Shown one piece after another: positions 6,976 to 51,979 of a stretch of 64,000 nt of DNA. How positions within the stretch are numbered: the stretch's first letter is position 1; every line of letters starts with the position of its first letter. The stretch spans positions 795,084-859,083 of the forward strand of contig SSNU01000144.1 of assembly GCA_012064415.1 (NCBI GenBank), written 5' to 3'. A program made the translations under genes and the position numbers. Origin of the DNA: Gyrodactylus bullatarudis. Lineage: Eukaryota > Platyhelminthes > Monogenea > Gyrodactylidea > Gyrodactylidae. The notes under the pieces are model-generated. The model did not search any database, was not told the DNA's origin, and worked only from the letters and a program-made list of their open reading frames with translations.

Positions 6976-8940
6976 ATGAACGAAAATGACTGCTTGGCTC
7001 AGTCAGTGGCCTACGATGTGGATTATATTGGGAGCCATTTCAACGAGATCTTGGAGTATGCATTAAACTCGATAATTCTCCATCAACCGAATGACCCTGT
7101 AGAATTTCTCTCAGAATATCTCAAATTTTGGGCCAAAGTTATCCGTGAGACTAGAGTTGTAAGATGATAAAACTTAATTTACTATAGAAAACTATATCAA
7201 AAAGTGTCTACCAGGTACTTCTTAGAGCTCATATACCATGGTGCCTAAAGCTGGCCTTGGAGAGGTCTATTGCTGCGAAGAAACGAGAGAAAAAGGTTAG
7301 CTAACTTTACCCTCTGATAATTATTCTTATTATTATTTTGAGAGTTGTAAAAATCTAGCAATCCCACATCAACAATGTATTAGCCTAATTAGAGAGACAG
7401 AAAGAGAGAGAGCTGAGATGAAAAGAAGGACATAAAAATAATTTTATGTTTTTAAGAAAACCTTTAGAATTTCTCTTGTGTTTTTTGATTTATGATCAAC
7501 GTACTATTGATATTTGAGATAAAATTGTGTCACCACTGATCCCGAGATGGCTTAAGTTTAAAAGATTTTTTTATTACTTTCGAAGGCTGCTAGGAAAATT
7601 GTTTTTATTGCATGATGAAATATGAAAACTACTATACTACAATTATTATGGATTCAAAAATGGCCCTATAGAAGTAGTGAATAAACTCAAATTTATCCTA
7701 ATTTGAATTTAAAGGGACATCATAAGACATCTTTGAGACATGGTAAAGAAATATGTTTCAACCTAACATTTGATTTACTCATGTGGGATACTGAAAATAA
7801 ACTTTTACTCCAAATCACATCACGACTCAATTACCCAAAGGCTGAGAGTCTGAGTGAAATACATGTATGTATGTGAGGGTATGAAATAAGTTTCGAATAG
7901 ACCAAATAGATTATTCTTTAAAACCTCTTGATTATTGACTTTTTTGAAGGAATCCGAAATTTATCGTGGATCTGTGAAAAATTAAATGGTTCCATGCTTT
8001 TATTTATGTGAATCTAGAATGCCACCATGGGAATTTCGAAAAATTGCTATATTCACAAAGTTATCAATTCATTAGGATTTTAGATAATTAATCGAGTACA
8101 TTAGGGGTGTGTATATGAGAGATTCGGAGATAAATTTGATCAACTTAATGCTAAAAATGCAATGATAATAGAAACTGCGTGCATTAAAACCAAAAGCGAA
8201 TCTCTTTTTGCCTACAATTGACGAATTTTCCCCTTGAAAAAGTAAGTGCTGATGGAAAGGTAAAGAGTCACTCATGCGAAAATGATGAATTTGGCAAATT
8301 TGTTGCATACCTTTTGGAATTATTCCACTTGTCAAAAAAATATTCCTTTCTATTAGAGTTATGATGCGAAAAATAACTATGAAAATGAAAAATGGAGTCA
8401 CATGAATAAATTTTTCAAATGAAGTCATAAATTTAACTGCCTAGCTTGAATAAAATTTAAGAGAGAAGAGTTTTATGAAATTCAAAAATATCTAGTTTAA
8501 ATTAATAATCGTTAGAGTTTCTTGTGTAAAAATGACATGAAATTATTTAGTTTATGTTCTTTCAAATTACAACTTAATTTGTGTGCATACTTGTAAGTAG
8601 TTATGTGAATTTATTTTCATCTTAGAATATGAAAGATAAAACATACCATTTGATAGAGAACCAAAAGAAGGAGAAAGATGATACTGAAAGCACCAAAAGG
8701 TTGATATGTGAATCAGTCGTTTCTCAGTTGAAAAATCTCATTCTCGAAGATACAACATACCAAGTTAAGATTAAAGTCAAAGACATTATGATCAGGAAAT
8801 GGGCCAAAATGGACTCTTCTCAAAAGGGTGAAATTAAGTTTCGAATTGAAGGTGAACGCTCAGATGATCCTTCAGAAGACCTGCATGATGAGGATGCTGG
8901 GGAGGACTTCGAGGAGGACGAAAATGAAGATGACTCTTGA
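6976..8940 (+). CDS. Dpy-30-domain protein with acidic C-terminus (three-exon model)
   Basis: Proposed join 6976..7158, 7188..7295, 8626..8940, giving 201 aa. Exon 1 encodes a Dpy-30 motif at residues about 14-50 (DYIGSHFNEILEYALNSI, then DPVEFLSEYL), the dimerising helix pair that docks onto amphipathic helices in COMPASS or ciliary complexes. The first intron is either 29 bp (7159..7187) or 56 bp (to 7214); both keep the frame. Intron 2 is 1330 bp and joins in phase 0. The last exon is charged and ends in an Asp/Glu-rich tail of about 30 residues. The domain is well supported. The link to the last exon rests on splice sites and phase only, so exon 3 could be a separate gene starting at the ATG at 8629. 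DPY30 itself is about half this length, so I give no gene symbol. Confidence 0.6.
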
Positions 8941-9150: not shown

Positions 9151-9158
9151 TATAAATA
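9151..9158 (+). promoter_or_regulatory. TATA box for first small secreted protein gene
   Basis: TATAAATA lies 34 bp upstream of the ATG at 9185. At normal TATA spacing, transcription would start just before the ATG, giving a very short 5' UTR. Confidence 0.55.
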
Positions 9159-9184
9159 GACTGGAGTTGAAATGGAGAATAGTA

Positions 9185-9427
9185 ATGAATAGATTCTTAA
9201 TTTGCCTTATATTCGTCATTATTGCATCTTACATTTCAATAGATGCTAAAAAAGGAGGTGAATACGGAGAGAATGGAGGTGACTATGGGGAGAAAGGAAA
9301 CAAAAAAAGATTTAATGAAGAAAAAATTAGCCGGAGAATAAGGAAAAATTTTGATAAACTTAGTCAAGAATTCAAACAAAATATGACAGATTTATTCTGT
9401 CCTTCTACTACAACTGTAGCAGTTTGA
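9185..9427 (+). CDS. Small secreted protein, tandem family member 1
   Basis: An 80-aa protein. The ATG at 9185 is chosen because it opens directly into a signal peptide (MNRFLICLIFVIIASYISIDA); the frame upstream has no ATG. The mature part has a Gly/Glu/Lys-rich linker, then the family core FDKLSQEFKQNMTDLFC with an N-glycosylation sequon (NMT), and a short Thr/Val tail. The same core recurs in the next two genes (9513 and 9904), all in the same orientation. An AATAAA overlaps the last base of the stop codon. I do not recognise the family and propose no function beyond secretion. Confidence 0.7.
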   Translation: MNRFLICLIFVIIASYISIDAKKGGEYGENGGDYGEKGNKKRFNEEKISRRIRKNFDKLSQEFKQNMTDLFCPSTTTVAV

Positions 9428-9512
9428 ATAAAAAAAACTTTCTTCTCGAATATTTTAAATTGTTTTAGCAAGCATATAATAACACCTCTGAATCGAGTGA
9501 GTCAAAATTAAA

Positions 9513-9674
9513 ATGTTAGCTATTAAATTCACGACAATCCTCTTTATGATGATGTATTATAAGTCGTTGAAAAGCCTTGACGAGATGAAATTACGAGGAA
9601 AATTAGACAGAACCTTCAACGATTTATCTGACGAATTCAAGCAATACATGAAAAATCTATTCTGTACCGTCTAA
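9513..9674 (+). CDS. Small secreted-type protein, tandem family member 2 (short)
   Basis: A 53-aa frame from the ATG at 9513. The N-terminus (MLAIKFTTILFMMMYYKSL) is hydrophobic and signal-like but shorter than in its neighbours. The core FNDLSDEFKQYMKNLFC matches member 1 (F..LS.EFKQ.M..LFC). The basic Gly-rich linker and the Thr tail are absent, and the sequon is replaced by YMK. A TATAATAA-like box lies about 38 bp upstream and an AATAAA about 13 bp after the stop. It may be a reduced functional copy or a decaying one; the frame is intact. Confidence 0.55.
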   Translation: MLAIKFTTILFMMMYYKSLKSLDEMKLRGKLDRTFNDLSDEFKQYMKNLFCTV

Positions 9675-9903
9675 CTATAATGATAATAAAGAATTTTCGT
9701 ATTGTTGAAGAAATTTTCAGTACCCTTTATTGTGAGAATGTCTCTTGATAGATATAGTAGTTGATAAGGAATGATGCAATAAGCTAACCTATACCAACAA
9801 TACGTCACCATGGTAAATCATCCTGGTATTTAATTGGAGCAGACTCAATCTTTGTCTGGGAATAAAATAGTAGTAGCTTGAGAGAAAAACTTAATCTAGA
9901 AAT

Positions 9904-10209
9904 ATGCGCAAGTTATTGTTTGTCCTAATCGCTCTGGTCCTATTCAGCTTTGTAAGCATTGATGCTCACAAGAAGGGCAAGAAACATGGTGCTGATAAGA
10001 AACATGGTGGTGGTAAAAAGATGGAACTTTCCGAGGAGAAGATTTTCGAAATGTTCAAAAACAAGTTTCTGACAATGTCTGACACTTTCAAAATGAATGT
10101 AACAAGTCTGGTCTGTACAGCACCTGTTACCACTGAGGCTCTCACAACAACTGGGTCAAGTAGCACAACAACGACAACAAACTCAACACAGCCCGCAGTG
10201 GCCCCTTAG
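9904..10209 (+). CDS. Small secreted protein, tandem family member 3 (mucin-like tail)
   Basis: A 101-aa protein. Residues 1-21 (MRKLLFVLIALVLFSFVSIDA) form a clear signal peptide, nearly the same as in member 1 through the end SIDA. A Lys/His/Gly-rich stretch follows (KKGKKHGADKKHGGGKK), then the family core FLTMSDTFKMNVTSLVC with sequon NVT, and finally a 30-residue Thr/Ser-rich tail likely to be O-glycosylated. An AATAAA lies 13 bp after the stop. Secreted, basic and glycosylation-prone proteins are often surface, mucus or cuticle components, but no function is assigned here. Confidence 0.75.
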   Translation: MRKLLFVLIALVLFSFVSIDAHKKGKKHGADKKHGGGKKMELSEEKIFEMFKNKFLTMSDTFKMNVTSLVCTAPVTTEALTTTGSSSTTTTTNSTQPAVAP

Positions 10210-10669
10210 AATGTTTTCAAATAAAATTATTTGAAGCTTGCACTGATTTTCTTCTCTCTTTCTCTGGTAGTAATAAAAATTTCAGTTTCTTCAACTATGC
10301 AATGAGCATTTTCAAAATAATCCCCCTAATTCATGCAGTGTATAGTAAAGTATATGAAATTATCCAAGACTATCCTCCTTGGTTAAAATGACAAATTTGT
10401 TTTCTCTTCAACAATTTTGCAGTAAATAAAATTCCATTAGTGTGGAGCTTGAGAGTTGCAAAACTTTGCAAATGAAATTTGTTTCATATTCTAGTTGGGC
10501 ATTTTTTAAATATGTTCTTTGTTTTGGATAAAAGCAATATTGTTTTTTATTCATAAAAATATGTTCTGTATAATATACACACTGTATATAAATGCATGGT
10601 TTTTAAAAAACCTAATCGAATAAATAAACTCCGTGAGAAGAGAGGAATAGTGTCATTAGCATAGTAAAA
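10210..10669. other. Myosin heavy chain upstream region
   Basis: 460 bp with no coding signal between secreted protein 3 and the myosin ATG; presumably the promoter and 5' UTR. A TATA-like TATATAA lies near 10585. Confidence 0.4.
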
Positions 10670-13600
10670 ATGGACCCACGAGATCCAGATTTTGTTTTCC
10701 TCGGCGTTGATCGAAAACATATACTCGAGGAAATAGGCGAATACGATTTCAAATCAAAAGCTTGGATAGAAGATGAGAAAGAGGGATTTTCACTGGCCGA
10801 TATAGTCAACACAACTGGGGATATTGTAACTCTAAGGCTGAAGAATGGCAAGGAGACCAAGATCAGGAGAGACAATCTTCAACTTGCCAATCCTGCCAAG
10901 TTTAAAATGATTGAGGACATGGCAAATCTTACATATCTTAACGATGCCTCTGTCCTTGACAACCTTAGGACAAGATATGACCAAAATTTGATTTATGTAA
11001 TTTTATTTTGCAATTAATAGTTTTATACAGACCTATTCAGGACTATTTTGTGTAACAATAAATCCTTTCAAAAAGTTACCAATTTACACAACGAATATAG
11101 CCCTAAAGTACAAGCGTAAAAGAAGGTCCGAAATGCCTCCACACATCTTTTCTATAGCCGATAATGCTTACCACAACATGTTACAGGAGAGGGAGAACCA
11201 ATCAATTTTAATAACGCAAGTTTATTGAATACTCACCTCATTGGTTTTTTTATAGGGGAGAGTCAGGAGCTGGTAAGACAGAGAACACGAAAAAGGTCAT
11301 CTCATATTTTGCAATTGTCGCAGCACAGACAACTCGCAGGGATGAGGAGGTTGAAAAGAAGTCTCTCGAGGATCAAATTGTCCAGGCCAATCCAGTCCTT
11401 GAATCCTATGGAAATGCAAAAACAAATAGGAATAACAATTCTTCCAGATTTGTAAGATGAACATATTTTACGGAATATTCAGGGTAAATTTATTCGTATT
11501 CATTTTGGTACAAATGGGAAAATTGCTGGCGCTGATATAGAATATTGTAAGCAAATAAAATGTTGTTATATTTTCTCAAGACTTGTTGGAAAAGTCCAGG
11601 GTAAACTCACAAATGCCGGGAGAGAGAAATTATCACATCTTTTATCAAATTCTCTCCAAGTACGCTGAAAAATGGCACGGTAAGCTATTCCAGCTGAAAG
11701 TTTCCAAATGAGCCTCTAAACTGAAAGATATATCTATTTATAGAGTCTCTCTTACTAAAACCGGACCCGGCTCTTTATTCCTTTATAAATCAGGGTGAAT
11801 TAGTTATCGACGGTGTTGATGATTCGGAAGAAATGAAAATAACCGATGAAGCTATTGATGTTCTTGGTTTTACAAATGATGAAAAAATGTCTCTGTTCAA
11901 GAGCACTGCCTCAATCTTGAATTTGGGTCAGATAAAGTTTAAACAACGTCCAAGAGAAGACCAAGCCGAATGTGATGGAACAACAGATGCTGAAAAAGTT
12001 GCCTTTCTTCTCGGAGTGAATGCAAAAGATCTTTCGAATGCTTTTCTGAGGCCAATTGTCAAAGTGGGAAATGACCATGTCACAAAAGGACAAAACTTAG
12101 ATCAAGTGTTAAACGCTATTAGTGCTTTGGCGAAATCTCTCTACAATAGAATGTTCAACTGGCTAGTCCAAAGGGTGAATAAAACTCTTGATACTAAGGT
12201 TAGACGACAATACTTTATAGGAGTTTTGGATATTGCTGGCTTTGAAATCTTCCAGGTAGGTCATAACCTCTGACCTCTTTCTAAAAAAAGTCTGTAATTT
12301 TTTGATTCAGGAAAATGGTTTTGAACAAATTTGTATCAATTATACAAATGAGAGACTCCAACAATTCTTCAATCATCACATGTTTATTCTTGAGCAAGAT
12401 GAATATCGGAAAGAAAACATAAGTTGGACATTTATTGATTTTGGTCTTGACCTACAGGCCTGCATTGACTTGATTGAAAAGCCAATGGGAATCCTTTCGA
12501 TACTGGAGGAGGAGTGCATGTTTCCCAAGGCTAGTGATCAGACGTTGAAGGAAAAACTCTATGAAAATCATTTGGGAAAAAGTCCCAATTTCTCAAAACC
12601 AAAGCCATTGAAAGGCTGTGTAAGAGAGGCGCACTTTGAGTTAAAACATTATGCTGGAACATTGCCTTATAATATAAGCGGTTGGCTTGAGAAGAACAAG
12701 GATCCAGTTAATGAATGTGTTGTTTCCTTACTAGAGACATCGAAAGAGTCTCTTATTTCGCAATTATTCGCGTCCAGCAACGATCAAAGTCTTTCTGGTA
12801 AAAAAAGAAAAAGCGGTTCCTTCATGACAGTTTCCTACGTTCACAGGGTTAGTTGGTTACTTTAATTCAATCTCTATTGATTAATAATTCATCTTTTTAT
12901 CATTAAATAAAGGAATCACTAAATAAGCTCATGAAAAACTTACATAGTACCTCTCCACATTTTATTCGCTGCATTGTACCCAATGAAATGAAGGAGCCGG
13001 GTTCGATAGATCCTCAGTTGGTTTTACACCAATTGCATTGTAATGGTGTCCTCGAAGGAATTAGAATTTGCAGAAAGGGTTATCCAAACAGGATGGTCTA
13101 TTCGGAGTTCAAGCAGAGGTAACTAACTAATTTTCAAGTTTATCAATTACAATTTATAATTCGAATTAAAAATTTTAGATACTCAATACTGGCGCCAGAT
13201 GCGATCCCAAAAGGATTTATGGACGGAAAAATTGTTACAGAGAAAATTCTAACTGCGATACAAATTGATACTCGTCTCTATCAGTGTGGCAATACCAAAG
13301 TATTTTTCAAGGCTGGAACTCTAGCTGAACTCGAGGAGATGCGAGACGAGAAAATTGGAAAATTAATATCGCTCTTTCAGGCTCAGATAAGAGGCTATAT
13401 TATGAGAAGAAAGTACAATATACTCCTTGATCAGCGTACTGCACTTTCATTAATCCAGAGAAACATTAGAAAATATTTGATTCTTCGAACATGGCCATGG
13501 TGGAAGCTTTTCACAAAGATTAAGCCCCTTTTAAATGTCGCCCGACAGGAGGATGAGGTGAAAAAAGCTCTGGATGATTTGAATAGGCTTCGAGCAGAGT

Positions 13601-16600
13601 TTGAAAAGCTTGAAAAATTGAAGAAATCTTTTGAAGAGCAAAACGTGACACTGCTTCAACAAAAGAACAGTCTCTTTATTCAGTTGCAAGCTGAGCAAGA
13701 TAACTTGGCTGACGCAGAAGAGAAATTTGCCAATATTCTCCATCAAAAAGCATACATTGAACAACAACTTAAAGATATTGAAGAACGGCTAAGAGAGAAG
13801 GAAATGTTGAACGTGTCTTTAAATGAGGAAAAAGTGAAATATCTAAAGGAAATCGACGAACTAAAGAAGGACGTGGAGGATCTTGAGTCAAGCCTTCAAA
13901 AAGCGGAGCAAGAAAAAATACAAAAAGATTTACAAATAAAAACATTACAAGAGGAAATGTTAAAGCAAGATGATGAAATAAGGAGGATAACCAAAATAAA
14001 ATTAAAACTAGATGAATCTTTCAAGAAGTTGGAAGAAGAACTCCATAGAGAAGAGGAGAAGAATGATCATTTGACAAAGATAAATCTCAAGTTGGAATCA
14101 GCCTTTGAGGAGACTCAAAATAGTCTCGATAGAGAGAAGAAACTGCGGAGTGATGTTGAAAAATCAAAACGAAGGATAGAACAAGACCTTAAACTTTCAC
14201 AAACGAGCTTTGATGCTTTGGATAAGTCAAAGGCATCTTTAGAAGAGATTTTGTCAAAAAAAGATATTGAAATTGGCATACTCAATGGAAAATTGGAAGA
14301 TGAAGAAAACGTCATTGCCGCACTGCAACGTAAAATAAAAGAACTTCAAAATCGGATTCAAGAGCTGGAGGAGGATTTAGACGCAGAGAAAATGGCTCGA
14401 ATGAAAGTAGAAAAATCAAAAAGTCAAGTGCAATCTGAGTTAGATGAACTGAATGAAAAACTCGAGGAGCAAGGTGATCAAACAGACATTCAAATTGAAC
14501 TAAATAAGCGTCGAGAAGGAGAACTTTTGAAGCTCAAACAAGATTTGGAAGAACAACGATCAGCCCATGAACAGCAAATGATAGTCCTTCGCAAAAAACA
14601 GACTGATACTTCAAATGAACTCCTGGAGGAAGTAGAAAAGTTGAAAAAAAGCAAATTGAAATCGGAAAATGAAGCTATTGAACTCAAGAGGTTATGTGAG
14701 CAGCTCAATAGACAAATTGATGTTCTGAATAAGGGAAAGGTATTTGAATACAAGTTATTTTTTATAAAAAAACATAATTTTGATGCGAAATTTCATCTTA
14801 AATTACAGGTCAACTCTGAGAGAATTATCAAATCTTTGGAAGGGCAAATCTCTGATCTTTCACAAAAGTGTGAAGATTACCAAACTAAAAACGAAGAGTT
14901 GATTCGAGAAAAAATAAACCTTAAAAATGAAAATATTGATATTTCAGAGCAGATTAAAGAGCTGGAAGCAAAGCTCTGTGAAATTACACGTTTAAAAGCT
15001 CAAATATCAGCTCAATTTGATGAATCGAATCTCCGACTAGATGAGGAAATTAGGGTAAGTTACCAACTTGAATTTAGCGGGAAATATTTATTAATATATT
15101 AAATAATATTATTATTTTGGAAAGGCAAAGAACAAGCTACTTGGTGATGTGAAGAGACTAAATGCAGACCTCGATTATCTTCGTGACAGCCTTGAGGAAG
15201 AGCAAACGAGCAAATCTGAGTTGCAAAAAGTTCTTCAAAAAACCTATTCAGAGTTGAATACATTCAAGTCAAAGGATAATAAGGACGATATAAAAGTGGA
15301 AGAACTCGAAGAGATCAAGAGAAGGTATAATCAAAAAATAGCTGAACATGAGAGAGAAAATCTTGAGGTTAAATCAAGATGTGCTCAGTTAGAAAAGTCA
15401 AAATCTCGATTACAGGGTGAAGTGGAAGATCTAATGATTGACATTGAAAGAGCCCATGCTACCGCTAGTCAGTTGGAAAAGAAACAAAAGGTTTTTGATA
15501 AAACATTATCTGATTATGTCAACAAATATCAAGATATCAAGGTCGGTTTCAAGAATGTATTTTACAATTTCATTTTCACAAAATTATATTCTAGAATGAC
15601 TTGGAAGAATCAAACAAGTGTTGCCGGGATTATTCAACAGAAAACTTTAGACTCAAAACCCAAATAGAAGAGTTCAATGAACAAATTGAGAGTCTGAGGC
15701 GGGAAAACAAAAATCTATCAGGTAATTGTCATATTTCTATCTAACCCTTGTTGATTTAAGAGGAGAAGCGGGAATTAAATGATCAAATCAGCGAGGAAGG
15801 CAAAAGTCTCTATGAAGCATCCAAAGTAAATAAGCGCTTCGAAGTTGAGAGAGAAGAGCTTCAAAATGCCCTAGAGGAAGCTGAAAAGGCTTTGGAACAA
15901 GAAGAAGCAAAAGTTCAGCATGCTAACTTGGAAATTTCTCGATTAAAGAAAGAAGTTGAGAATAAGCTCGCTGAGAGAGAGGAAGAGTTTGAGACAACTC
16001 GAAAGAATCATGAAAAAGTAATCGAGAGCATGCAAATAACTCTTGATGCCGAAACAAACAGAAAAAATGAAGCAATGAGGATAAAAAAGACTCTTGAATC
16101 TGAAAAAAATGAACTAGAGGCAGCTCTAGAATCTTGCAATCGATCCCGTGGGGAACAAGAGAAAAGTTGTCAAAAGCATCTTAGCCAAATCAGTGAATTG
16201 GAAAATAAAATTGAAGAATTGGAGAGAACTAAAGACGACCTTGAGGAGAAACGACAAAATGTGGAAAGGAAAAATAACCATCTCGTTACAGAGCTTAAAG
16301 ATTTAAAAGTTAGTCTTGAATGTTCAGAAAAGACGAGGAAGAGCTATCAGCTTGAAAAGGAAGAAATTTTGGAACGAATTAATGATCTAACTGAGCAGTT
16401 GAGCACGATGAAAGTGGAAAAGAAGAGAATTGAAACTGACCTTAATCTGGTCATGGGTTCACTAGATGAGGCAAATATTGAAATAAAACAGGCCGAAGAA
16501 AAAGTTAAGAAGTCAATGTCAGAGAGTGCAAGGTTATTTGAGGAAATTCATCAAGAACAAGACAACAGTCTACAACTTGAGAGAAGTAAAAAGTTTTTGG

Positions 16601-17182
16601 AGCTAAAAGTTAAAGAGCTTGAGGCACGGCTTGAGGAAAACGAAGTAAACCAGGTCAAGAGTAATAGGAAACTAATCTCAAAATTAGAGCAAAAATGTCA
16701 TGACTTGGAGAATGAATTGGGCTCAGAGCGGAAGAGAAATTTTGAAACAGAGAGAAACATGAAGAAGTCTGAAAGAAAATTGAGAGATGTTTCACTGCAG
16801 GCAGAGGAGGAAAAATTGGCTCATGAGAAATTGGTTGATCTTGTAAGCTCTATGCAAACTAAAATAAAAGCATACAAGCGACAAATTGAAGAAGCTGAAG
16901 AACTTGCGGCGGTGAATTTGACAAAATATCGTAAACTCGTGCATGAAGTTGAGCAAGCTGATGAAAGAGCTGATCAAGCGGAGCAGGCCTTGCAAAAGTT
17001 TAAGGCTAAAACTAGGTCGAGCTCGCGTGCAGGGGAACCGACAACCAATCTGATCAACGTGAGTTATTTTGTTCTTCAAAAAACAAAATTTTATTGAATA
17101 AATTCCTTTTCCTCTTTTCTAGAGTAATTTGCCAAATACAAAAACCCACAAAACGAGGTTAGGAGATAAGGACGAATGCTGA
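10670..17182 (+). CDS. Myosin II (muscle-type) heavy chain, complete
   Basis: Fourteen exons: 10670..10996, 11031..11215, 11256..11451, 11483..11546, 11581..11679, 11744..12255, 12311..12847, 12913..13118, 13179..14739, 14809..15054, 15125..15541, 15595..15721, 15761..17058, 17123..17182, giving 1944 aa, the normal length for the family. Motor landmarks are the P-loop [11 protein letters not shown] (exon 3), switch I NNNSSRFGKF, switch [10 protein letters not shown], the actin-site segment FIRCIVPNE and the reactive-thiol helix [18 protein letters not shown] neck IQ region ([13 protein letters not shown]) follows. From [10 protein letters not shown] on there is an unbroken heptad coiled-coil rod of about 1100 residues and a short non-helical tail. 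The protein is an actin-based ATPase that builds thick filaments. Introns are 31-70 bp; the second (11216..11255) starts with GC instead of GT. No alternative exon cassettes are seen. Confidence 0.96.
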
Positions 17183-31177: not shown

Positions 31178-32431
31178 AAAAAAAATTCTCGTAATCACAC
31201 TATGTTTGTCACGAAGGAAAGAAATTTTTTAAAACTAACTTGATAATTTCTTTTGCATAATTCCACAAGTTAAAAAAATATCTTTTCCATATATATCTTC
31301 ACCATAATAATAAAATATTACGATTTGTCTGTAAAAAATAAATATTTCTCTCTGCGCAGTTCAAAGATAAGCATAGCATACATTCGAGATTGTAAACGCA
31401 ATGAAATTAATAATATTATATTTAAGAAATAAATAAATCTAGTCGAATTAAAAGAATAAAATTTCATTTAAAGCTAATCTAGGCACTCCATATTTAACCT
31501 TGTGGGTATAATTAATTTTAAAAGAATATACAAGACTGACACTCTGAAAAAAATTTATTCATCGAAAATATTTCTACTGGATTTGGATTCTCTTAAGGAT
31601 AGTGAAATTCTAAGCCTGACGGCAACTCGAAAACGAGGTCAACCTAGGCTGAAACGACTAAAATCAAAATATGAAGATGTGAAATGAATAAACGTTGTAT
31701 AATATATATATTTTCTTTCTTAATGCATAAAGTGTAGTCAAAAGCGTAAAGATGAAGAAAATTGTAGTTAAAAATGTAAAAACAAAATTAACTATAGTCA
31801 AAATATATTTGGAAAAAAATCTCAATATTTTAATTGGAATTTGACTATAGTCAAATGTGTAAAATATGGAAAAAAGTGTAGTCAAAAAATTAAAATATTT
31901 TTTCAAATTGTAATCAGAACTATGAAAAGTGTAGTCAAAAATTTAAATACATGATGTATGAGAGTTATTGTAGTCAAAAATGTAATTAAGAAAAAAAGTG
32001 TAGTCAAAGGTGTAAAAAATGAAAAAAACTATAGTCAAAATGTAATTGACTCTTAATTTTATTGGCGTATACTCAGAAATTTTATTTCCAAGTTATTGAT
32101 TTTCAAACGTAAAATCTAAACAGTAGAAACTCTTTAATGAATTAACATGTAGTAAGATGATTTGAATGAAATTTTAGTCTTTTTATTCAGTGATATAAAA
32201 TAGAATCAACAAAAATTGTAAGAGGTGAAAAAGTAGTTCTCGAATGGATGTTTGATTGATAAAATCTACAGAATATTTCTCATAGTTGTGAGATATTTCT
32301 CATTCATAAAGATCAATAGCTAGAATATCACACATACCAATGTTGAGCTTTAAAGATGCCTTGTTCGCTCAAGAAGTACATAATACAAAATATATTATTC
32401 TATTTATTTATTTAATTTTTAGCATTCTATT
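31178..32431. other. Spacer between beta-tubulin and innexin
   Basis: Contains the beta-tubulin 3' UTR (several AATAAA signals) and the minisatellite at 31733. A 61-codon frame near 31502 has an AT-hook-like KRGQPRLKR but no ATG and no support, so it is not called. Confidence 0.4.
31733..32045. repeat. Degenerate ~30-bp minisatellite, core TRTAGTCAAA
   Basis: The core T(G/A)TAGT(C/T)A recurs nine times, starting at 31733, 31763, 31793, 31846, 31877, 31930, 31969, 31999 and 32030. Spacings are 30, 30, 53, 31, 53, 39, 30 and 31 bp. Cores are usually followed by AAAATGTAA. The fill between cores is A-rich and variable. Confidence 0.8.
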
Positions 32432-33745
32432 ATGATAGAACTTCCTGACGAAGTCCTGAGTTTGGAAATATTAAGAAATGAGTTTCTCAAAGTTATCAAG
32501 AGGACAGATGCTACGGACTTTTCAGATAAATTTAATTACATTTACACAAGTTATTTGTTCTATGCATTTGCTCTAATTTCCTTATTGTTGAATTATATGC
32601 TTAAGCCAATCAGTTGTTATATTGCTACAGATTCAGGTGGCTCAAATATTGAAGTATATTTAAAATACCATTGCTGGGTCGACGGAATTATACCATCTAA
32701 TGTGATAGATGCTGATCCGAAGATTCATGACACAGCATATAACTACCAACATGTATTCGGAAGTAGCAACGAGACTCAATGGGAAAATCTGAAGAATTTT
32801 CGAATAAATTTCTATCAATGGATACCAATAATACTGGCATTCTTGGGTATTTTATTTCATCTGCCAAATGCATTGTGGAATTATATCATATTCAGGTATT
32901 TACCATGTTTGAATTTACTCAAAAAATCAAAAAAAGGCCAATATAATTATAGCAGTCAACAGGATAATTACACAGAACTTCCAACAGATCAAAATAAATT
33001 CAACCAGATAGAGGAGGAAATTTCATTTTTAATCGACAAAGAATTCAACAAAAGGAACAATAACTGCAGAAATAAAAAATTTTACACCAAGAAAATTCGA
33101 ATGGGAACATGGTATCTGTTGGTCAAGTTAATCTATATCCTAATAAGTATTTTTGAAGTTATTCTAATTCTATATCTATTAAATGTGAAGAGTCCTGATA
33201 ATTTCATAAAATGCTATCTGAAAAATGATCGAAGATATTGTCCTGAGAGTTCATTCCCAATTACAGGTTATTGTATAGCGGATCTTGCTCAAGTAGCTGG
33301 TTACAATAGAATCGTTGGACAATGTGTTTTTCCCTTGAACAATTACAACGAAAAAATGTTTCTATTTACAATAATTTGGATCCTATTGGCATTCTCCATA
33401 ACGATTTTCTCATTACCTCCATGGTTTGAAAAGATTTTTTCAAAGAAATATACCGATACAATGGTTAAAAACTCGCTAACTCCCATTAATCTGAGCAACT
33501 TTGAAAATAATATTCCAATTTATGGAAGTGAAAAGAGTATAGATCACATTATCGGCTCATTTGTGAGTCTTGTTTTTAGAACAGATATTGGATTTATTTT
33601 GAGAATAATTGCAACATCTTATGATATCGAGTTGAGCAACAAAATTATGGTTGCTTTATGGGAAAAGTTTCTGGGCTTTTATATGAAAAACAGAATAAAT
33701 AAGCCAACCTCTATAGTATTTGAAAAGAAAGAACAAATTATTTAA
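32432..33745 (+). CDS. Innexin (gap-junction channel protein)
   Basis: An intronless 437-aa frame. It shows four transmembrane segments: FYAFALISLLLNYMLKPISC, WIPIILAFLGILFHLPNALW, LLVKLIYILISIFEVILILY and FLFTIIWILLAFSITIFSL. The innexin signature YYQWVP appears as FYQWIP just before TM2. The first extracellular loop has the paired cysteines (ISCYIA...YHCW). The second loop has four (KCYLK, RRYCP, GYCIA, GQCVFPLNN), two more than usual. The GQCVFPLNN motif before TM4 is typical. It forms gap junctions and hemichannels. Codon use is as AT-rich as its neighbours. A TTTTTAG acceptor-like string just upstream may mark a 5' UTR intron. Confidence 0.93.
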   Translation: MIELPDEVLSLEILRNEFLKVIKRTDATDFSDKFNYIYTSYLFYAFALISLLLNYMLKPISCYIATDSGGSNIEVYLKYHCWVDGIIPSNVIDADPKIHDTAYNYQHVFGSSNETQWENLKNFRINFYQWIPIILAFLGILFHLPNALWNYIIFRYLPCLNLLKKSKKGQYNYSSQQDNYTELPTDQNKFNQIEEEISFLIDKEFNKRNNNCRNKKFYTKKIRMGTWYLLVKLIYILISIFEVILILYLLNVKSPDNFIKCYLKNDRRYCPESSFPITGYCIADLAQVAGYNRIVGQCVFPLNNYNEKMFLFTIIWILLAFSITIFSLPPWFEKIFSKKYTDTMVKNSLTPINLSNFENNIPIYGSEKSIDHIIGSFVSLVFRTDIGFILRIIATSYDIELSNKIMVALWEKFLGFYMKNRINKPTSIVFEKKEQII

Positions 33746-33909: not shown

Positions 33910-36351
33910 ATGCTATTTTGGATTGCTTCATTATTATTGTTAACTCATAAGAACCTAGCAGCATCTGAGTTGAATAATATAAACAGTTTTAATTTTAGTG
34001 AACCAATTGATCAACATGTCTGCCCATATTTAAGAATTGGTAAGGATACTTCGGTACCGGTTGTTTGTTGGCCAACATGTGGTATTCCAAAAGTTGTCAA
34101 AAAAATGTGAATCGTATACTTTTATTATTTCAAGGGTTAAAATTCAAAAAGATTGTTGCCCCGGTTACACAAGGAGCAAAGCCTTCATGAATAAGTGCAT
34201 AGTTAGCCAGAGGAGTACATTAATGACAACAGATTATTTGACATCAGTCGGGAAAAGGTTTTGTGCAAGAGCCCTTGAAAATAATGAGCATTTCAAAGAT
34301 TTGACAGCATACAACTCAGAATACCCGTACACAATATTTCTTCCCTATATTGATACAGACATAAAAAGTTCTCAAGTGAATTATATAGAGGAGAAAAATT
34401 CAACAAATCAATTGATTGCTCGTGGTAGATGGTACGCAAAGGACTTTGTAAACAATTTTAAAATACCTACCTTGATGGGGACAAATATGATTATATCAAC
34501 ATTTTCCAATGGTATGACATTTATAGACTGCAAAATTCTAATAAAGCCAGATCAGGAAACTCTCAATGGAATCATTCACGAGGTTCATGGTGTAAGTCAT
34601 GATTGATTGACAGTTTTTTAATTTGAGCTCTTGTTTCTGAGTTTAGTTGATAGACACCTTCGCCTTCATACAAATTCAAAACCATCTACGAAGCTCTAAG
34701 AGAAACCTATGAAACAAGAAAGTTTGCAGATGATCTGCCCCAAGATCTGATTGATAAACTAAATTCTACTGCCAGTAACACGCTTTATACAGTATTCGCT
34801 CCCAATAATGAAGCCTGGGTCAATTTAAAATCAACGGAGAAGGATGCATCAAGAAGGCATGAGATAATTAAAAATCACATTTTAGATAAAATTGTTTGCG
34901 CAATGGCCATAACAGGTTCGATGCAAAAGGTGGGTCCTACCCTAGGAGGGTCTTGGATAAATCTGGAAATTAAGAATGACAAGCAGGCCTATATCTATCC
35001 TGATTGTGGGAGTAAAATATTCTTCTCGAAAAAAGATATCATGTCGTCTAATGGAGTCGTGCATGGAATTAGTGGAATTATTTATAACATAAGAAGTAAG
35101 GGAATGGTGAAAATTTTTTTCATCTTTGAATTTCGTAAATTTAAATTTGCCATGAGCCATCAGCAATACAGAACTTTTATCTAGCTATGGATATGGATGA
35201 AACCTTTGGTTGTCTTGCTTTGAGCTCTATTCACAATGTAAACTGGGCAGCAAATAGAATGAAGACATGTAAACTGGCATTAAAAGATAATGCCATAGTG
35301 CTCCTACCAAATGACAAGGCTCTAGAATGTAAGCAAAGGAAGTGCATCAAGTTCGACAAAATATTAATTTTTTCAATCCTAGGGGCTAGAAGGTCAAATG
35401 AAGCATGGAAGTACCGTCAACAAATTGATAAGAATTTTTCTTTCCAATGTGAAGTAATGAAGAACCATATTTTGATTTCTCATGAGAAATATGCAAATGG
35501 ACTACCCCAGAAAAAGATGTTTGCATCGCTGCTAGAGAAGTCATCAATATGTGTTACCTATCAGAAGAAAAGAACAGGCTCAAAACTATACTTTAATTAT
35601 GCACAAGCAGTAAATCTTAAGCCAATAGAGTATAACGGAGGATCAATTTATGTTATCGATAAGATCATTTACCCAGCAGAGTTGACTATTGATAAGAGAA
35701 TTGAGAAATTTCAGGATTCAATGTTTGTTTACTTTCTATTTTATAATATTCCTTCATAGAATAACTCATAGGAAGTTTGAAGATAGCTCAACAATATTCG
35801 GTATAAATAAACGGTTGGGACTAGAAAATCAACAAAACTGGAAACGATTGATTGAACACGAGGGTAATAGCGAAGAAAACCGAAAAAAGATAATGTATTC
35901 AACACCTGGGTTTATTTTTTTGTCCCCTGTTGATGTTGGATGGTCGACGAGATCCAAAGAAATGAACTACACTCAAAATGAATTTAGAAACGTAAATTAT
36001 AATTGAATTAAAATAAGATTCTTCCAGTTTTTCCTATTGCACACGATAAAAGGAATGATATTTGGTGGAGGAGTAAACAACATTGATAGGGGAAGTGTAG
36101 TGAGGGTATCGTCAATGCTAAAGAAGCCGGATGGAAAGTTTCAAGAGTTGATTATACACCGAAAAATGTCAGGTGAAACTTTTGTTGGCTATGATGGGTT
36201 ATCTCAAAATAATTGGGTAAAATATATAAATCACTTTATCTTTTAGACAATGGTCCTGGATTGGATGAATCCAGTTGAAAATGGAAATATTTGGAAAATT
36301 GATTGGCCATTAGCCTGTTTGGATGCTCTGTGTAAATTGTCAAATGAATAA
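33910..36351 (+). CDS. Secreted FAS1 (fasciclin) repeat protein with EMI-like N-terminus
   Basis: Model: 33910..34591, 34654..35095, 35185..35722, 35760..35991, 36028..36216, 36247..36351, about 728 aa. A signal peptide (MLFWIASLLLLTHKNLAAS) is followed by a Cys-rich EMI-like module ending in DCCPGYTRS. FAS1 repeat 1 ends with the H2 motif NGIIHEVHG. Repeat 2 (TIYEALRETYE, YTVFAPNNEAW, GVVHGISGIIYNI) is clear, and two weaker FAS1-like regions follow. The plan resembles periostin/TGFBI-type extracellular adhesion proteins. The frame changes by one base within exon 1 at the A7 run 34099..34105; removing one A restores both the frame and overall divisibility by three. Introns of 30, 36 and 37 bp occur. 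The stop codon overlaps an AATAAA. Confidence 0.78.
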
Positions 36352-41200: not shown

Positions 41201-42642
41201 CGTCTAAAATTAACCATGGTGTAACAAGTCAGACATTATACATGCTTCAAGAGAGTTTTGTAATTTAACGTGAAGGAGTAAGAGAGAAAAATTTATCTTC
41301 ACAGATGATTAGGCAGAGCAAATGTGAAGAGAAAATGATGCAATAAATTTAAGGACGACAACTAAAGTACAAACTAGATTTCAAAACTTACGCAGGAAAT
41401 TCCTACAGCCACCAGCGTTGACACGGGATTTCCATTCACCGTTTTCTTGAGTTGCCTCCCAAATACATCCCTTAGTATCGAGTTCACCATCCTTGTCGAA
41501 ATCCGTAATCTTACCAGTGGCACCTGAACCTGTTGTTTCACTCAAGGATGTTGGTCCGAGATGGCAAATTTCTAATTTTTGATACTCCTTAACAAAATCT
41601 TGGAATGCCATCCAGAATTCACCATCATCATTGAAAGCCAAGTTTAATCGTTCCCGTTCGGACTCGTCAACGTAGTTCCAGGCACTGGATCCATCCGAAA
41701 ATGCACCCTTCCATTCAACATCATTACCCCACGGATTTCGAATGCGAACCAACGCTACTTTTCCCCCTTGGCCTGAGACAACTTCGACTCCAGTTATTGA
41801 GTAGGCATGGCCCATAACAAGGCCATTGTCCAATCTAGCTTCGGTTACATTAGGATCAGCGTCTATTGAACAGGCCATTAACGATTTTTTATTGATCGCT
41901 TGTAGCATAATTTGCAGTAGATTTTCTGGTTGTTTTCCTCTCAAGTCATACATTTCACCAATTCCAGAAGTGAAATCTTCCAGAGCCTCCACAGTTGTAC
42001 CTCCCTTGAGAGCTTCATATGAACCATTCATTCTGAAAGAAATTAAATTGAACTTTACTTTGCATATGCTTTTTCGAGAAGAGCAGACCAGAATTCACTT
42101 CTATCTTCAGAATGCATATAAATCAGCTGGCCATTACGACAAGGCAAGCGATCATCAACAATAACCTCTTTCCATTCTCCAAAATTCCATAATCGGAATT
42201 TAAAACAACCAAAATATTCATTCTGGAAACTTTGGTCAATAGGAACAACCTGAACGAAAAGATCTCGGTGCAAAGTAAGAGAAGCTACGGCAGCAAGAAG
42301 CCAACAATCACCAAGAGCTCCTTGTCGGATATCGAATCTAGAAACACCATCTTCGATAAAAAGTGGTTTCGAACAAATTTCATGGGGGCGAAGCCATTGA
42401 ATTTTATATCCTGGTGCCTCACTATAGAAAAGAGATGAATTAGCAGCTGGAAAATCAGGATCTTCATATAACTTTTTCTGTGACAAACAAGTGGCTTTAA
42501 CACTTGTGTATGTTCTATCATTAGTCGTCATTTGACCCCCTACAGTTGCTGGAATAGCTTTATCAGGAGTCACTCCATCAGAAGCAGATCCCACAACTTT
42601 GTTCTGTTCTTTAGCTCGTAGTATGTATCTTGCGTTAGTCAT
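38275..42642 (-). CDS. Calpain A (classical PEF-type cysteine protease)
   Basis: Ten exons on the minus strand: 42059..42642, 41392..42032, 40632..40786, 40370..40581, 40269..40305, 40067..40202, 38801..38859, 38669..38737, 38352..38609, 38275..38301 (725 aa). The Cys-His-Asn triad is complete: [22 protein letters not shown] and VRIRNPWG. A domain III (C2-like) segment follows ([38 protein letters not shown]), then a penta-EF-hand domain ([24 protein letters not shown]). The third EF loop ([14 protein letters not shown]) has lost its acidic ligands. It is a Ca2+-dependent intracellular protease. It starts at MTNAR and lacks the N-terminal exon found in calpain B. A 26-bp intron (42033..42058) splits AYAK|MNGSY. 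The insert [12 protein letters not shown] between protease core and domain III looks EF-loop-like. Confidence 0.93.
39323..39432. repeat. 19-bp perfect inverted repeat in a calpain A intron
   Basis: TAACGTTGTTCGCTTGCTA at 39323..39341 is repeated in reverse complement at 39414..39432, with a 72-bp loop that itself contains a CTGAC/GTCAG pair. It lies in the 1207-bp intron. It could form a hairpin or be the ends of a tiny transposon remnant. Confidence 0.75.
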
Positions 42643-42881
42643 TTGATAGGTAGTTTGTTGTCAACAAATTGTTGATTATACTTTTTCAAAATTATACATT
42701 TTTCTAAATTCGCCGAAGTAATTGAAACAAAAATATCAGTTACTCATTATTGTCGCGTTTGTTTACTCAAATATATTAAATATCATATTTATTAAATATT
42801 ATTTATAATAGATCTAATTTATTAAATTTTTAACGGATATAAATAATAAATACATGATATAGAATTTCAAACAATATTTGA
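42643..42881. promoter_or_regulatory. Divergent promoter region of calpain A and the LAMTOR4-like gene
   Basis: 239 bp separate the two divergent start codons. It contains one copy of GTTTGTTTACTC (42757..42768), the same 12-mer found twice upstream of beta-tubulin. That it is the promoter is inferred from position. Confidence 0.5.
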
Positions 42882-50100: not shown

Positions 50101-51979
50101 ACTATAACTTTGTAAATATATTCATTCAGACGATCGATAAAATCAAGTGTATAGTCTTTTCATGTGAAAAAATAATTACTTTATAAATTGAATAGCCGAT
50201 TGTGAGTAGATCCATACCAGCATGACGAAGAGCTCGTCTATCCTTTTGCATTAGACCGACAATAAGAGTAGCCAATTCTCCATCTTCATCAGGGCTTTCA
50301 AGGTTAACAACGTACTGTGGATTTGTCCAGAATGTACCTTGATAAAGGAACTATTATCATTGAGAATAAATTTATCTGACATATCTGAGAAAATTAATCG
50401 GGTATATCGAAATTATGCATGTATATTTTTAAAAATTAGGAGTGCAATCTTACTTAGATAATTTCTACAGCCTCCAGCATTAACTCGAGATTTCCATTCC
50501 CCATTCTCTTGAAATGATTCCCAGACACATCCATGACCTTCATGTCCATGACCATCACCATGATCATGCGAGGTGATCTGTCCAGTGGCGCCAGAATTGT
50601 CGGTTTCACTCATGGAAGAAGGTCCAAGATGACATATTTCTAATTTTTGATACTCCTTAACAAAATCTTTATATGCCATCCAGAATTCACCGTCATCACG
50701 AAAACTTAATTCTAATCTTTCTCTTTCACCGGAATTAACATAGTTCCAGGCACTGGATCCATCCGAAAATGCACCCTTCCATTCAACATCATTACCCCAC
50801 GGATTTCGAATGCGAACCAACGCTACTTTTCCCCCTTGGCCTGAGACAACTTCGACTCCAGTTATTGAGTAGGCATGGCCCATAACAAGGCCATTGTCCA
50901 ATCTAGCTTCGGTTACATTAGGATCAGCGTCTATTGAACAGGCCATTAACGATTTTTTATTGATCGCTTGTAGCATAATTTGCAGTAGATTTTCTGGTTC
51001 TTGTCCTCTCAAGTCATACATTTCACCAATTCCAGAAGTGAAATCTTCCAGAGCCTCCACAGTTGTACCTCCTTTAAGAGCTTCATATGAACCATTCAAT
51101 CTAAAAACAATATTTAATACATAATTGAGTATAGTGTTATAATAATCTAATTAGTAATTATTAATTACAGAAGTGCCTTACTTTGCATATGCTTTTTCGA
51201 GAAGAGCAGACCAGAATTCACTTCTATCTTCAGAATGCATATAAATCAACTGGCCATTACGACAAGGCAAGCGATCATCAACAATAACCTCTTTCCATTC
51301 TCCAAAATTCCAAAAGACAAATCTAAAGCAACCAAAATATTCATGGGTGAAACTTTGATCATTTGGGACAACTTGGTTAAATAAATCTTTGTGTTGAGTT
51401 AGTGATGCAACAGCAGCAAGAAGCCAACAATCACCAAGAGCCCCTTGTCTAATATCAAATCTCGTTGCTCCATCTTCTATAAACATGGGATTAGGACAGA
51501 TCTCATGAGGGCGGAGCCACTGAATTCGATATCCAGGAGATTGGCTATAGAACAAGGACGAGTTATCAGCAGGAAAATCAGGATCCTCAAATAATTCTCC
51601 ACTTGCAAGACATTGCCTTTTGAGATTTTCATAGGCTAAATTGTTTGTTGTAATCTCTCCTCCTTTGGAAGCTGGAATTGCCCTGCTTGCTTTCAAACCA
51701 GCATCTCCAGTCACCATAACTTTGTTTTCTTTTTGGGCTCGGAGAGCTGCCCGTGAATCAGCAAAATGACCAAATTTTAAGCCAGCATTTATAATTTGGG
51801 CACCAAATTTACCAACCATTGGAGCATTTACTCCCTTTAAACAAGGAAAATGTAAAATAAATCTATCATACCAGAAATCCTCCAATAGGGTTATTTCTAT
51901 CAGTCAACTTTTCAGCAATCATTTGAGGATCGATATCGATCCCTGCTTGTTTCATAAATCCCTTAATATTACCGAACAT
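44128..51979 (-). CDS. Calpain B (classical PEF-type cysteine protease)
   Basis: Eleven exons on the minus strand: 51872..51979, 51182..51834, 50454..51100, 50180..50337, 49831..50042, 47883..47919, 45922..46057, 44655..44713, 44524..44592, 44207..44461, 44128..44154 (786 aa). A Gly/Met-rich N-terminal segment ([35 protein letters not shown]) precedes the core. The triad is intact ([25 protein letters not shown]), followed by domain III and a PEF domain ending FLDSILYL. Exon sizes 27, 69, 59, 136, 37 and 212 equal those of calpain A, so the genes are tandem duplicates. Introns here are far longer (52-1911 bp). The segment between core and domain III is His-rich ([13 protein letters not shown]) instead of the acidic loop of calpain A. 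Confidence 0.93.
47464..47480. repeat. (CTT)n microsatellite in a calpain B intron
   Basis: Five to six CTT units in the 1825-bp intron 46058..47882. Confidence 0.8.
48790..49475 (+). mobile_element. LINE (non-LTR retrotransposon) reverse transcriptase fragment
   Basis: A plus-strand stretch inside the 1911-bp calpain B intron, antisense to the gene. It encodes the RT catalytic motif KYADDIKII at about 48834..48857, then [18 protein letters not shown], then [12 protein letters not shown] and a thumb-like region to HFDYR. This order (YADD, LN..K, DLG..D..L) is that of Jockey/RTE-type LINE reverse transcriptases. Downstream, other frames give [11 protein letters not shown] and [10 protein letters not shown], the usual C-terminal motifs, with frameshifts between. 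There is no 5' RT half and no endonuclease, so it is a dead, 5'-truncated copy. Confidence 0.75.

What the first reader, a model, noticed from the sequence alone, without database searches (positions are those of the whole stretch)
9151..10209. Tandem family of small secreted proteins with a shared F..[LM]S..FK...[TK].L.C core
Three same-strand genes within 1.1 kb share a signal peptide (two end in SIDA) and one 17-residue core: FDKLSQEFKQNMTDLFC, FNDLSDEFKQYMKNLFC, FLTMSDTFKMNVTSLVC. The outer parts differ: Gly/Glu-rich linker, no linker, or a Lys/His linker plus a Thr-rich mucin-like tail. Each has its own TATA-like box and AATAAA. A single conserved Cys suggests disulfide-linked dimers. I know of no named family with this core, so it may be lineage-specific (surface, mucus or host-interaction proteins).
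Basis: partly seen in the sequence, partly recalled or inferred. Interest (0 to 1): 0.75.

Follow-up and report, generated by a model that had tools for sequence, protein, structure and literature searches.

The report
Flatworm family of tiny secreted proteins
Three neighbouring genes in this flatworm genome belong to a small, unnamed family of short secreted proteins that share a two-helix, one-cysteine core, probably products of gland or surface cells; the family is real and unnamed in the libraries searched, but its function is unproven.

Summary
The three single-frame ORFs exist (9185-9427, 9513-9674, 9904-10209) and share one core beyond chance. The host genome (77.3 Mb, 471 contigs) holds at least five more members: eight at four places, three of them clusters. 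Leave-one-out core profiles recover all eight (E 1.5e-5 to 5.3e-14; best unrelated frame 0.085).

Shared plan: signal peptide (weak in B); Gly/His/Lys-rich linker, absent in B and H; core ending [ST]xxF[KR]x5[LFY][FIV]C; short tail. All eight have one mature Cys, five keep an N-x-T sequon at one core site, three have Thr-rich tails. The core models as a helical hairpin ending at the Cys. Six of eight have TATAWA 33-50 nt before the ATG (background 4.3%).

Mitochondrial cox1 fits the flatworm code best; genome size and GC suggest a gyrodactylid monogenean (inference). No Pfam, NCBIfam or PDB match was convincing; the protein database missed even an innexin of this window, so its silence is uninformative.

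Best reading: small glycoproteins of gland or surface cells, perhaps Cys-linked dimers. Function and expression are untested.

The parts
9151..9158 (+). TATA box of gene A (TATAAATA)
   Evidence: read; strict TATAWA at -34
9185..9427 (+). Gene A, 80 aa: signal peptide, Gly/Lys/Glu/Tyr linker, core with N-M-T sequon, Thr tail PSTTTVAV; stop included
9427..9432 (+). AATAAA of gene A, overlapping its stop codon
9475..9482 (+). TATA-like TATAATAA of gene B (weak)
   Evidence: read; not a strict TATAWA
9513..9674 (+). Gene B, 53 aa: weak signal peptide, no linker, core without sequon; stop included
9685..9690 (+). AATAAA of gene B
9861..9869 (+). TATA-like AATAAAATA of gene C (weak)
   Evidence: read; not a strict TATAWA
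9904..10209 (+). Gene C, 101 aa: signal peptide, Lys/Gly/His linker, core with N-V-T sequon, 30-residue Thr-rich tail; stop included
10036..10116 (+). Core of gene C (residues 45-71): modelled helices 44-57 and 60-71, Cys71 last
   Evidence: AlphaFold2, block means of pLDDT 71-80 there
10220..10225 (+). AATAAA of gene C

Best explanation
A dispersed, partly tandem gene family of a flatworm (most likely a gyrodactylid monogenean) that makes very short secreted proteins. SHOWN by sequence: eight genes, each a single open frame; a hydrophobic N-terminus (weak in B); a variable His/Gly/Lys linker (absent in two); a conserved core of about 30 residues with exactly one mature Cys at its end; an N-x-T site at one core position in five; Thr-rich tails in three; TATA boxes at a similar place in six. 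PREDICTED: the core is a two-helix hairpin. INFERRED: each gene is an independent promoter-to-poly(A) unit (about 200-370 bases for the window's three), strongly expressed in a secretory cell type (gland or tegument); the products are N- (and in C probably O-) glycosylated, pair through the terminal Cys and the hairpin's hydrophobic side into dimers, and the cationic or His-rich linker binds acidic glycans or metal ions, so that the dimers act as small cross-linkers in a mucus, adhesive or surface coat. Changes of linker and tail between paralogues would tune this binding while the pairing core stays the same.
For: Family and genome distribution. Statistical reality: (leave-one-out E-values; third codon positions differ in 64% of compared codons against 44% and 39% for first and second, and 139 of 289 identical non-Met/Trp residue pairs use different codons, as expected of selection on the protein). 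One mature Cys in 8 of 8, sequon in 5 of 8 (A, C, D, E, F), linker and tail composition. Hairpin. TATAWA at -33 to -50 in A, D, E, F, G, H; background 204 of 4,724 ATGs (4.3%), 6 of 8 by chance 1.7e-7 (range chosen after seeing the sites). Flatworm code: cox1 scores 399.9 bits under table 9, 390.9 under table 4, 380.2 under table 5.
Against: No expression data of any kind. Hydrophobic moments of single helices exceed shuffles at p < 0.05 in only 2 of 16, so the hydrophobic face is weakly supported. The models are of middling confidence (core pLDDT 71-85, pTM 0.30 and 0.47). B lacks sequon, linker and a strict TATA box and has a weak signal, so B may be decaying. G and H lack the sequon. H has net charge -6 and no linker, which does not fit glycan binding by every member. 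The flatworm adhesive discussed in PMC12472103 (passages) is said to be low in His.
Confidence: 0.4

Rival explanations
1. Antimicrobial or membrane-active peptides of the worm's surface: His/Lys/Gly-rich cationic part plus short helices, protecting an animal that lives among microbes.
For: Four of eight sequences after residue 18 have net charge +3 or +4 (A, C, D, F). Small size, tandem duplication and divergence suit such peptides (general knowledge).
Against: Charges of the other four are +2, +1, 0 and -6; moments exceed shuffles in only 2 of 16 helices; one conserved Cys and a conserved N-glycosylation site are not typical (for the counts).
Confidence: 0.15
2. Secreted modulators of the fish host (immune or epithelial targets), diversifying by duplication.
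For: Secreted and glycosylated by prediction, no recognisable family, core identities among paralogues 21-52%.
Against: No target, no fold of a known modulator; the parasite identity is itself an inference.
Confidence: 0.15
3. Matrix proteins of hard parts (hooks, bars) or egg/embryo envelopes, where His-rich segments bind metals and Cys cross-links.
For: His-rich linkers in D, E and F, less so in G and C; PMC5428946 (passages) cites high sulphur, and vanadium, in Gyrodactylus sclerites.
Against: Only one Cys per mature protein, unlike a sulphur-rich keratin-like protein; predicted glycosylation; two members lack the linker altogether.
Confidence: 0.12
4. Chance ORFs or dead copies without a product.
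For: No transcript data; B is poor in several features.
Against: Eight recovered by leave-one-out profiles, codon-position pattern of a protein under selection, TATA and AATAAA in place.
Confidence: 0.03

Closest known systems
Micro-exon gene (MEG) products of schistosomes (recalled)
   Same: Flatworm, small secreted, lineage-restricted, multi-copy
   Different: MEGs are defined by chains of tiny symmetrical exons; all eight genes here read as one open frame
Macrostomum adhesive proteins ap1/ap2 (passages of PMC12472103)
   Same: Flatworm gland secretion with Lys/Arg-rich low-complexity parts
   Different: Here 53-101 aa and partly His-rich, while that paper calls the adhesive low in His; no sequence of ap1/ap2 was compared
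Keratin-like proteins proposed for gyrodactylid hooks (PMC5428946, passages)
   Same: Possible disulfide use, metal-binding side chains
   Different: One Cys per mature protein, single short core, predicted glycosylation
Pfam PF10917 Fungus-induced, PF03964 Chorion_2, PF21827 New_glue, PF12347 HJURP_C
   Same: Faint scores, the first three on signal peptide, linker or tail, HJURP_C on residues 50-77 of A (its core)
   Different: All below the curated cut-offs

Membership tests
Shared in-genome family (members A-H) | Core of about 30 residues recovered by a profile that does not contain the member | tested here: met
   8 of 8, E 1.5e-5 to 5.3e-14
Shared in-genome family (members A-H) | Hydrophobic signal peptide | tested here: met
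   (Kyte-Doolittle only, no trained predictor): 7 of 8 strong, B weak
Schistosome micro-exon genes | Several tiny symmetrical exons (recalled definition) | tested here: not met
   each of 8 genes is one open frame from ATG to stop; no RNA data
Pfam Chorion_2 / Fungus-induced / New_glue / HJURP_C | Score over the curated cut-off | tested here: not met
   16.1 vs 26, 13.9 vs 24, 9.9 vs 31, 13.3 vs 22.7 bits; (8 members): best E of any family 0.02
EF-hand proteins (faint profile hits) | Calcium-binding loop with spaced acidic residues (recalled) | tested here: not met
   best E 0.027, matching end of linker and first helix; no such loop seen in the core by eye (alignment, cores)
Keratin-like sclerite proteins | High sulphur (many Cys) | tested here: not met
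   one Cys in each mature part, 8 of 8
Macrostomum ap1/ap2 adhesive proteins | Sequence relation | not tested
   no sequence of these proteins fetched
Disulfide-linked dimer | Intermolecular Cys-Cys bond | not testable with these tools
   needs protein chemistry

The most novel reading that the evidence does not exclude
A flatworm-restricted protein family invented for secretion: a minimal helix-hairpin 'clasp' with one terminal Cys and a conserved glycan site, onto which evolution attaches interchangeable His/Gly/Lys linkers and Thr-rich tails to make a set of tunable dimeric cross-linkers for the worm's mucus or glue.
Probability: 0.15. Interest if true: 0.6.

Novelty: new member of a known kind. 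Interest (0 to 1): 0.35.

Why it matters
Secretions of monogenean-type flatworms bear on how they hold on to fish and deal with mucus; my literature searches turned up few named protein components. Eight short genes with a common core give defined probes for in situ staining, proteomics and protein chemistry. As biology it is of an ordinary kind (a probably taxon-restricted secreted gene family), so the general surprise is modest.

Tried and rejected
Homology outside the genome: one single-sequence and one profile search of the 5.8-billion database gave nothing at E <= 10, but a Pfam-verified innexin of this window also gave nothing at E <= 0.001, so I do not read this as evidence for an orphan family. 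PDB by sequence (best E 0.027) and by fold (one match, E 5.5) gave nothing; NCBIfam, a library for bacteria and archaea, gave faint hits (best E 0.0084, one of 8 members). One DNA search of plasmids was empty.

A shared promoter motif beyond TATA: k-mers of 8, 9 and 10 bases with one mismatch in 250 bases upstream did not exceed random window stretches. Amphipathic helices as proof of a pairing face: only 2 of 16 helices at p < 0.05, though all 16 lay at p <= 0.42, a weak common tendency. Not counted as members: C374 (E 0.44, a stop inside the match); C238 (E 0.045, E 0.18 with the full profile), whose frame has a His run followed by a stretch ending in KKITNFMIC but no signal peptide in the same frame and no S-xx-F[KR]; it could be a distant relative and stays open. 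The C98 hits of member F rest on signal peptide and linker and were not counted. The EF-hand lead was rejected.

Papers: 10 searches (listings with starts of abstracts seen, one search found none). Passages seen in PMC12677651, PMC11727194, PMC5428946, PMC12472103. None of the listings seen described this family; I read no paper in full, and much of the field's literature is not held.

Full report
WHAT IS THERE. Three same-strand single-frame ORFs lie at 9185-9427 (A, 80 aa), 9513-9674 (B, 53 aa) and 9904-10209 (C, 101 aa), just upstream of a myosin heavy chain gene whose first frame starts at 10670 (myosin tail by Pfam for 13123-15099 and 15760-17094; the head judged by eye). Two regular expressions for the core match only at these three places in six frames of the window.

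THE FAMILY IS LARGER. Searches of the window's own genome (G000, 77.3 Mb, 471 contigs) with single members find five more: D at C448:92007 (+), E at C448:95931 (+), F at C467:1258438 (+), G at C443:622991-622779 (-) and H at C443:621627-621463 (-). A, B, C form one cluster; D and E lie 3.9 kb apart start to start; G and H lie 1.2 kb apart, about 181 kb from A on the same contig; F stands alone in the 10-kb stretches fetched on either side. Searches with B and with the 31-residue core of E added no member. The tool scores only its best candidates, so eight is a lower bound; C238 (E 0.045) is an open, uncounted candidate. H, like B, has no linker.

IS IT MORE THAN CHANCE. For each member a profile of the other seven cores was run against that member and 3,622 six-frame segments (25 residues or more) of the window and ten fetched stretches of about 10 kb. 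All eight are found: A 2.4e-9, B 1.5e-5, C 2.9e-11, D 3.3e-10, E 5.3e-14, F 5.3e-13, G 2.9e-10, H 6.8e-8; the best non-family segment in any run had 0.085 and the best reversed segment 0.23. Over the 28 pairs of cores the three codon positions differ in 44, 39 and 64%, and 139 of 289 identical residue pairs (Met and Trp left out) use different codons: the protein rather than the DNA is conserved. Core identities are 21-52%, so these are probably old duplicates.

ANATOMY. N-terminus: seven of eight have a strong hydrophobic stretch (best nine-residue Kyte-Doolittle mean 2.98-3.97); B has 2.02 (no trained predictor was at hand). Linker: Gly/Lys/Glu/Tyr in A, Lys/Gly/His in C, His/Gly/Lys in D, His/Gly in E, Gly/His/Lys in F, Gly/His in G, none in B and H. 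Core: one Glu, one Phe and the Cys are invariant; the cores printed all end [ST]xxF[KR]x5[LFY][FIV]C, and a Trp precedes the first helix in D-H but not A-C. The N-x-T sequon sits six residues before the Cys in A (NMT), C (NVT), D (NLT), E (NVT) and F (NIT), not in B, G, H. The mature part has exactly one Cys in 8 of 8. Tails: Thr-rich in A, C and D (PSTTTVAV; 30 residues with a further NST; TPPTTTPAVLPVV), 1-7 residues in the rest.

STRUCTURE. AlphaFold2 on the eight-member alignment gives helices 44-57 and 60-71 for C (mean pLDDT 62.7, core blocks 71-80) and 40-53 and 56-67 for E (mean 69.1, core blocks 76-85): a short hairpin with the Cys as last helical residue, flanked by low-confidence linker and tail. 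Fold search of the E model in the PDB found no significant match. Hydrophobic moments exceed shuffles at p < 0.05 in only 2 of 16 helices (all 16 at p <= 0.42), so a pairing face is a guess.

PROMOTERS. A strict TATAWA lies 33-50 nt before the ATG in A, D, E, F, G and H (H also has one at -53). Among 4,724 ATGs of the window and six fetched stretches 204 have one at -55 to -26 (4.3%), and 18 of 390 ATGs that open frames of 50 aa or more; six of eight has a binomial probability of 1.7e-7 or 2.5e-7 (the background includes the family genes held there, neighbouring ATGs are not independent, and the range was chosen after seeing the sites). B and C have TATA-like TATAATAA and AATAAAATA at -38 and -43 (read). 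An AATAAA follows each stop within about 40 nt, in A overlapping the stop. From box to AATAAA the window's three units span 282 (A), 216 (B) and 365 (C) bases, so each looks like an independent unit rather than an operon member. No other shared upstream word exceeded controls.

ORGANISM. The genome's cox1 (contig C13, 14,926 bases) scores best under table 9, in which AAA is Asn: 399.9 bits against 390.9 (table 4) and 380.2 (table 5) (conserved DRN-x-N reading, the conservation recalled). Among animals that code is used by flatworms and echinoderms (recalled). Window GC is 28-37% by 2-kb block. PMC12677651 (passages) lists G. bullatarudis at 84.35 Mb and 31.26% GC, G. salaris at 67.38 Mb and 33.85%, G. 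kobayashii at 87.62 and 91.13 Mb with about 38.5%. A gyrodactylid monogenean is therefore likely; genus and species are not established.

KNOWN FAMILIES. No Pfam family reaches its cut-off in the members tabulated, and the best E of any Pfam family over all eight is 0.02; NCBIfam gives only faint hits (best 0.0084, one member); PDB by sequence nothing below E 0.027. The 5.8-billion protein database gave nothing, but a window gene that Pfam names innexin at E 8.1e-39 gave nothing either, so this says nothing about other flatworms.

VERDICT. Gland or surface secretion is the best guess for its place, Cys-linked dimers acting as small cross-linkers the best guess for its mechanism; both await experiment. 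The kind of thing (a probably taxon-restricted secreted gene family) is well known, so interest is moderate.

Noticed in passing
L002:2517-2651 (G000 C448:93023-93157, +): Between D and E a 45-residue ORF with signal peptide and His/Asp/Gly repeat (HDHDHGHDHD) but no core, with TATATATAAAG upstream: a linker-only sibling or a truncated copy. Its own search found only itself.
   Followed up: partly
G000 C98:560818-568111 (-) and 586896 (+): A second tandem group of small secreted proteins (signal peptide, Gly/His/Lys-rich then mostly Glu-rich, one with TTVAPE repeats), without the core: four (query included), and a linker-only one.
   Followed up: partly
G000 C238:349831-349977 (-), L054: A frame with a His run and a stretch ending KKITNFMIC that resembles the core weakly (E 0.045; 0.18); no signal peptide in the same frame. 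Possible distant or intron-containing relative.
   Followed up: partly
window 41381-42660 and 50413-51903 (-): Two closely similar calpain-like genes on the same strand about 8 kb apart; Peptidase_C2 by Pfam for 50413-51147, the rest judged by eye.
   Followed up: partly
window 55223-57264 (+): Adjacent frames resembling a Penelope-like retroelement (reverse transcriptase, then a GIY-YIG-like end), recognised from memory; the one piece scanned (55223-56134) had no Pfam match.
   Followed up: no
window 32429-33742 and 34034-34603 (+): An innexin in one long frame and, downstream, a fasciclin-domain frame (both Pfam).
   Followed up: no
window 8629-8940 (+): A 103-residue ORF with a strongly acidic end just upstream of the family; no Pfam match at E 10.
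   Followed up: no
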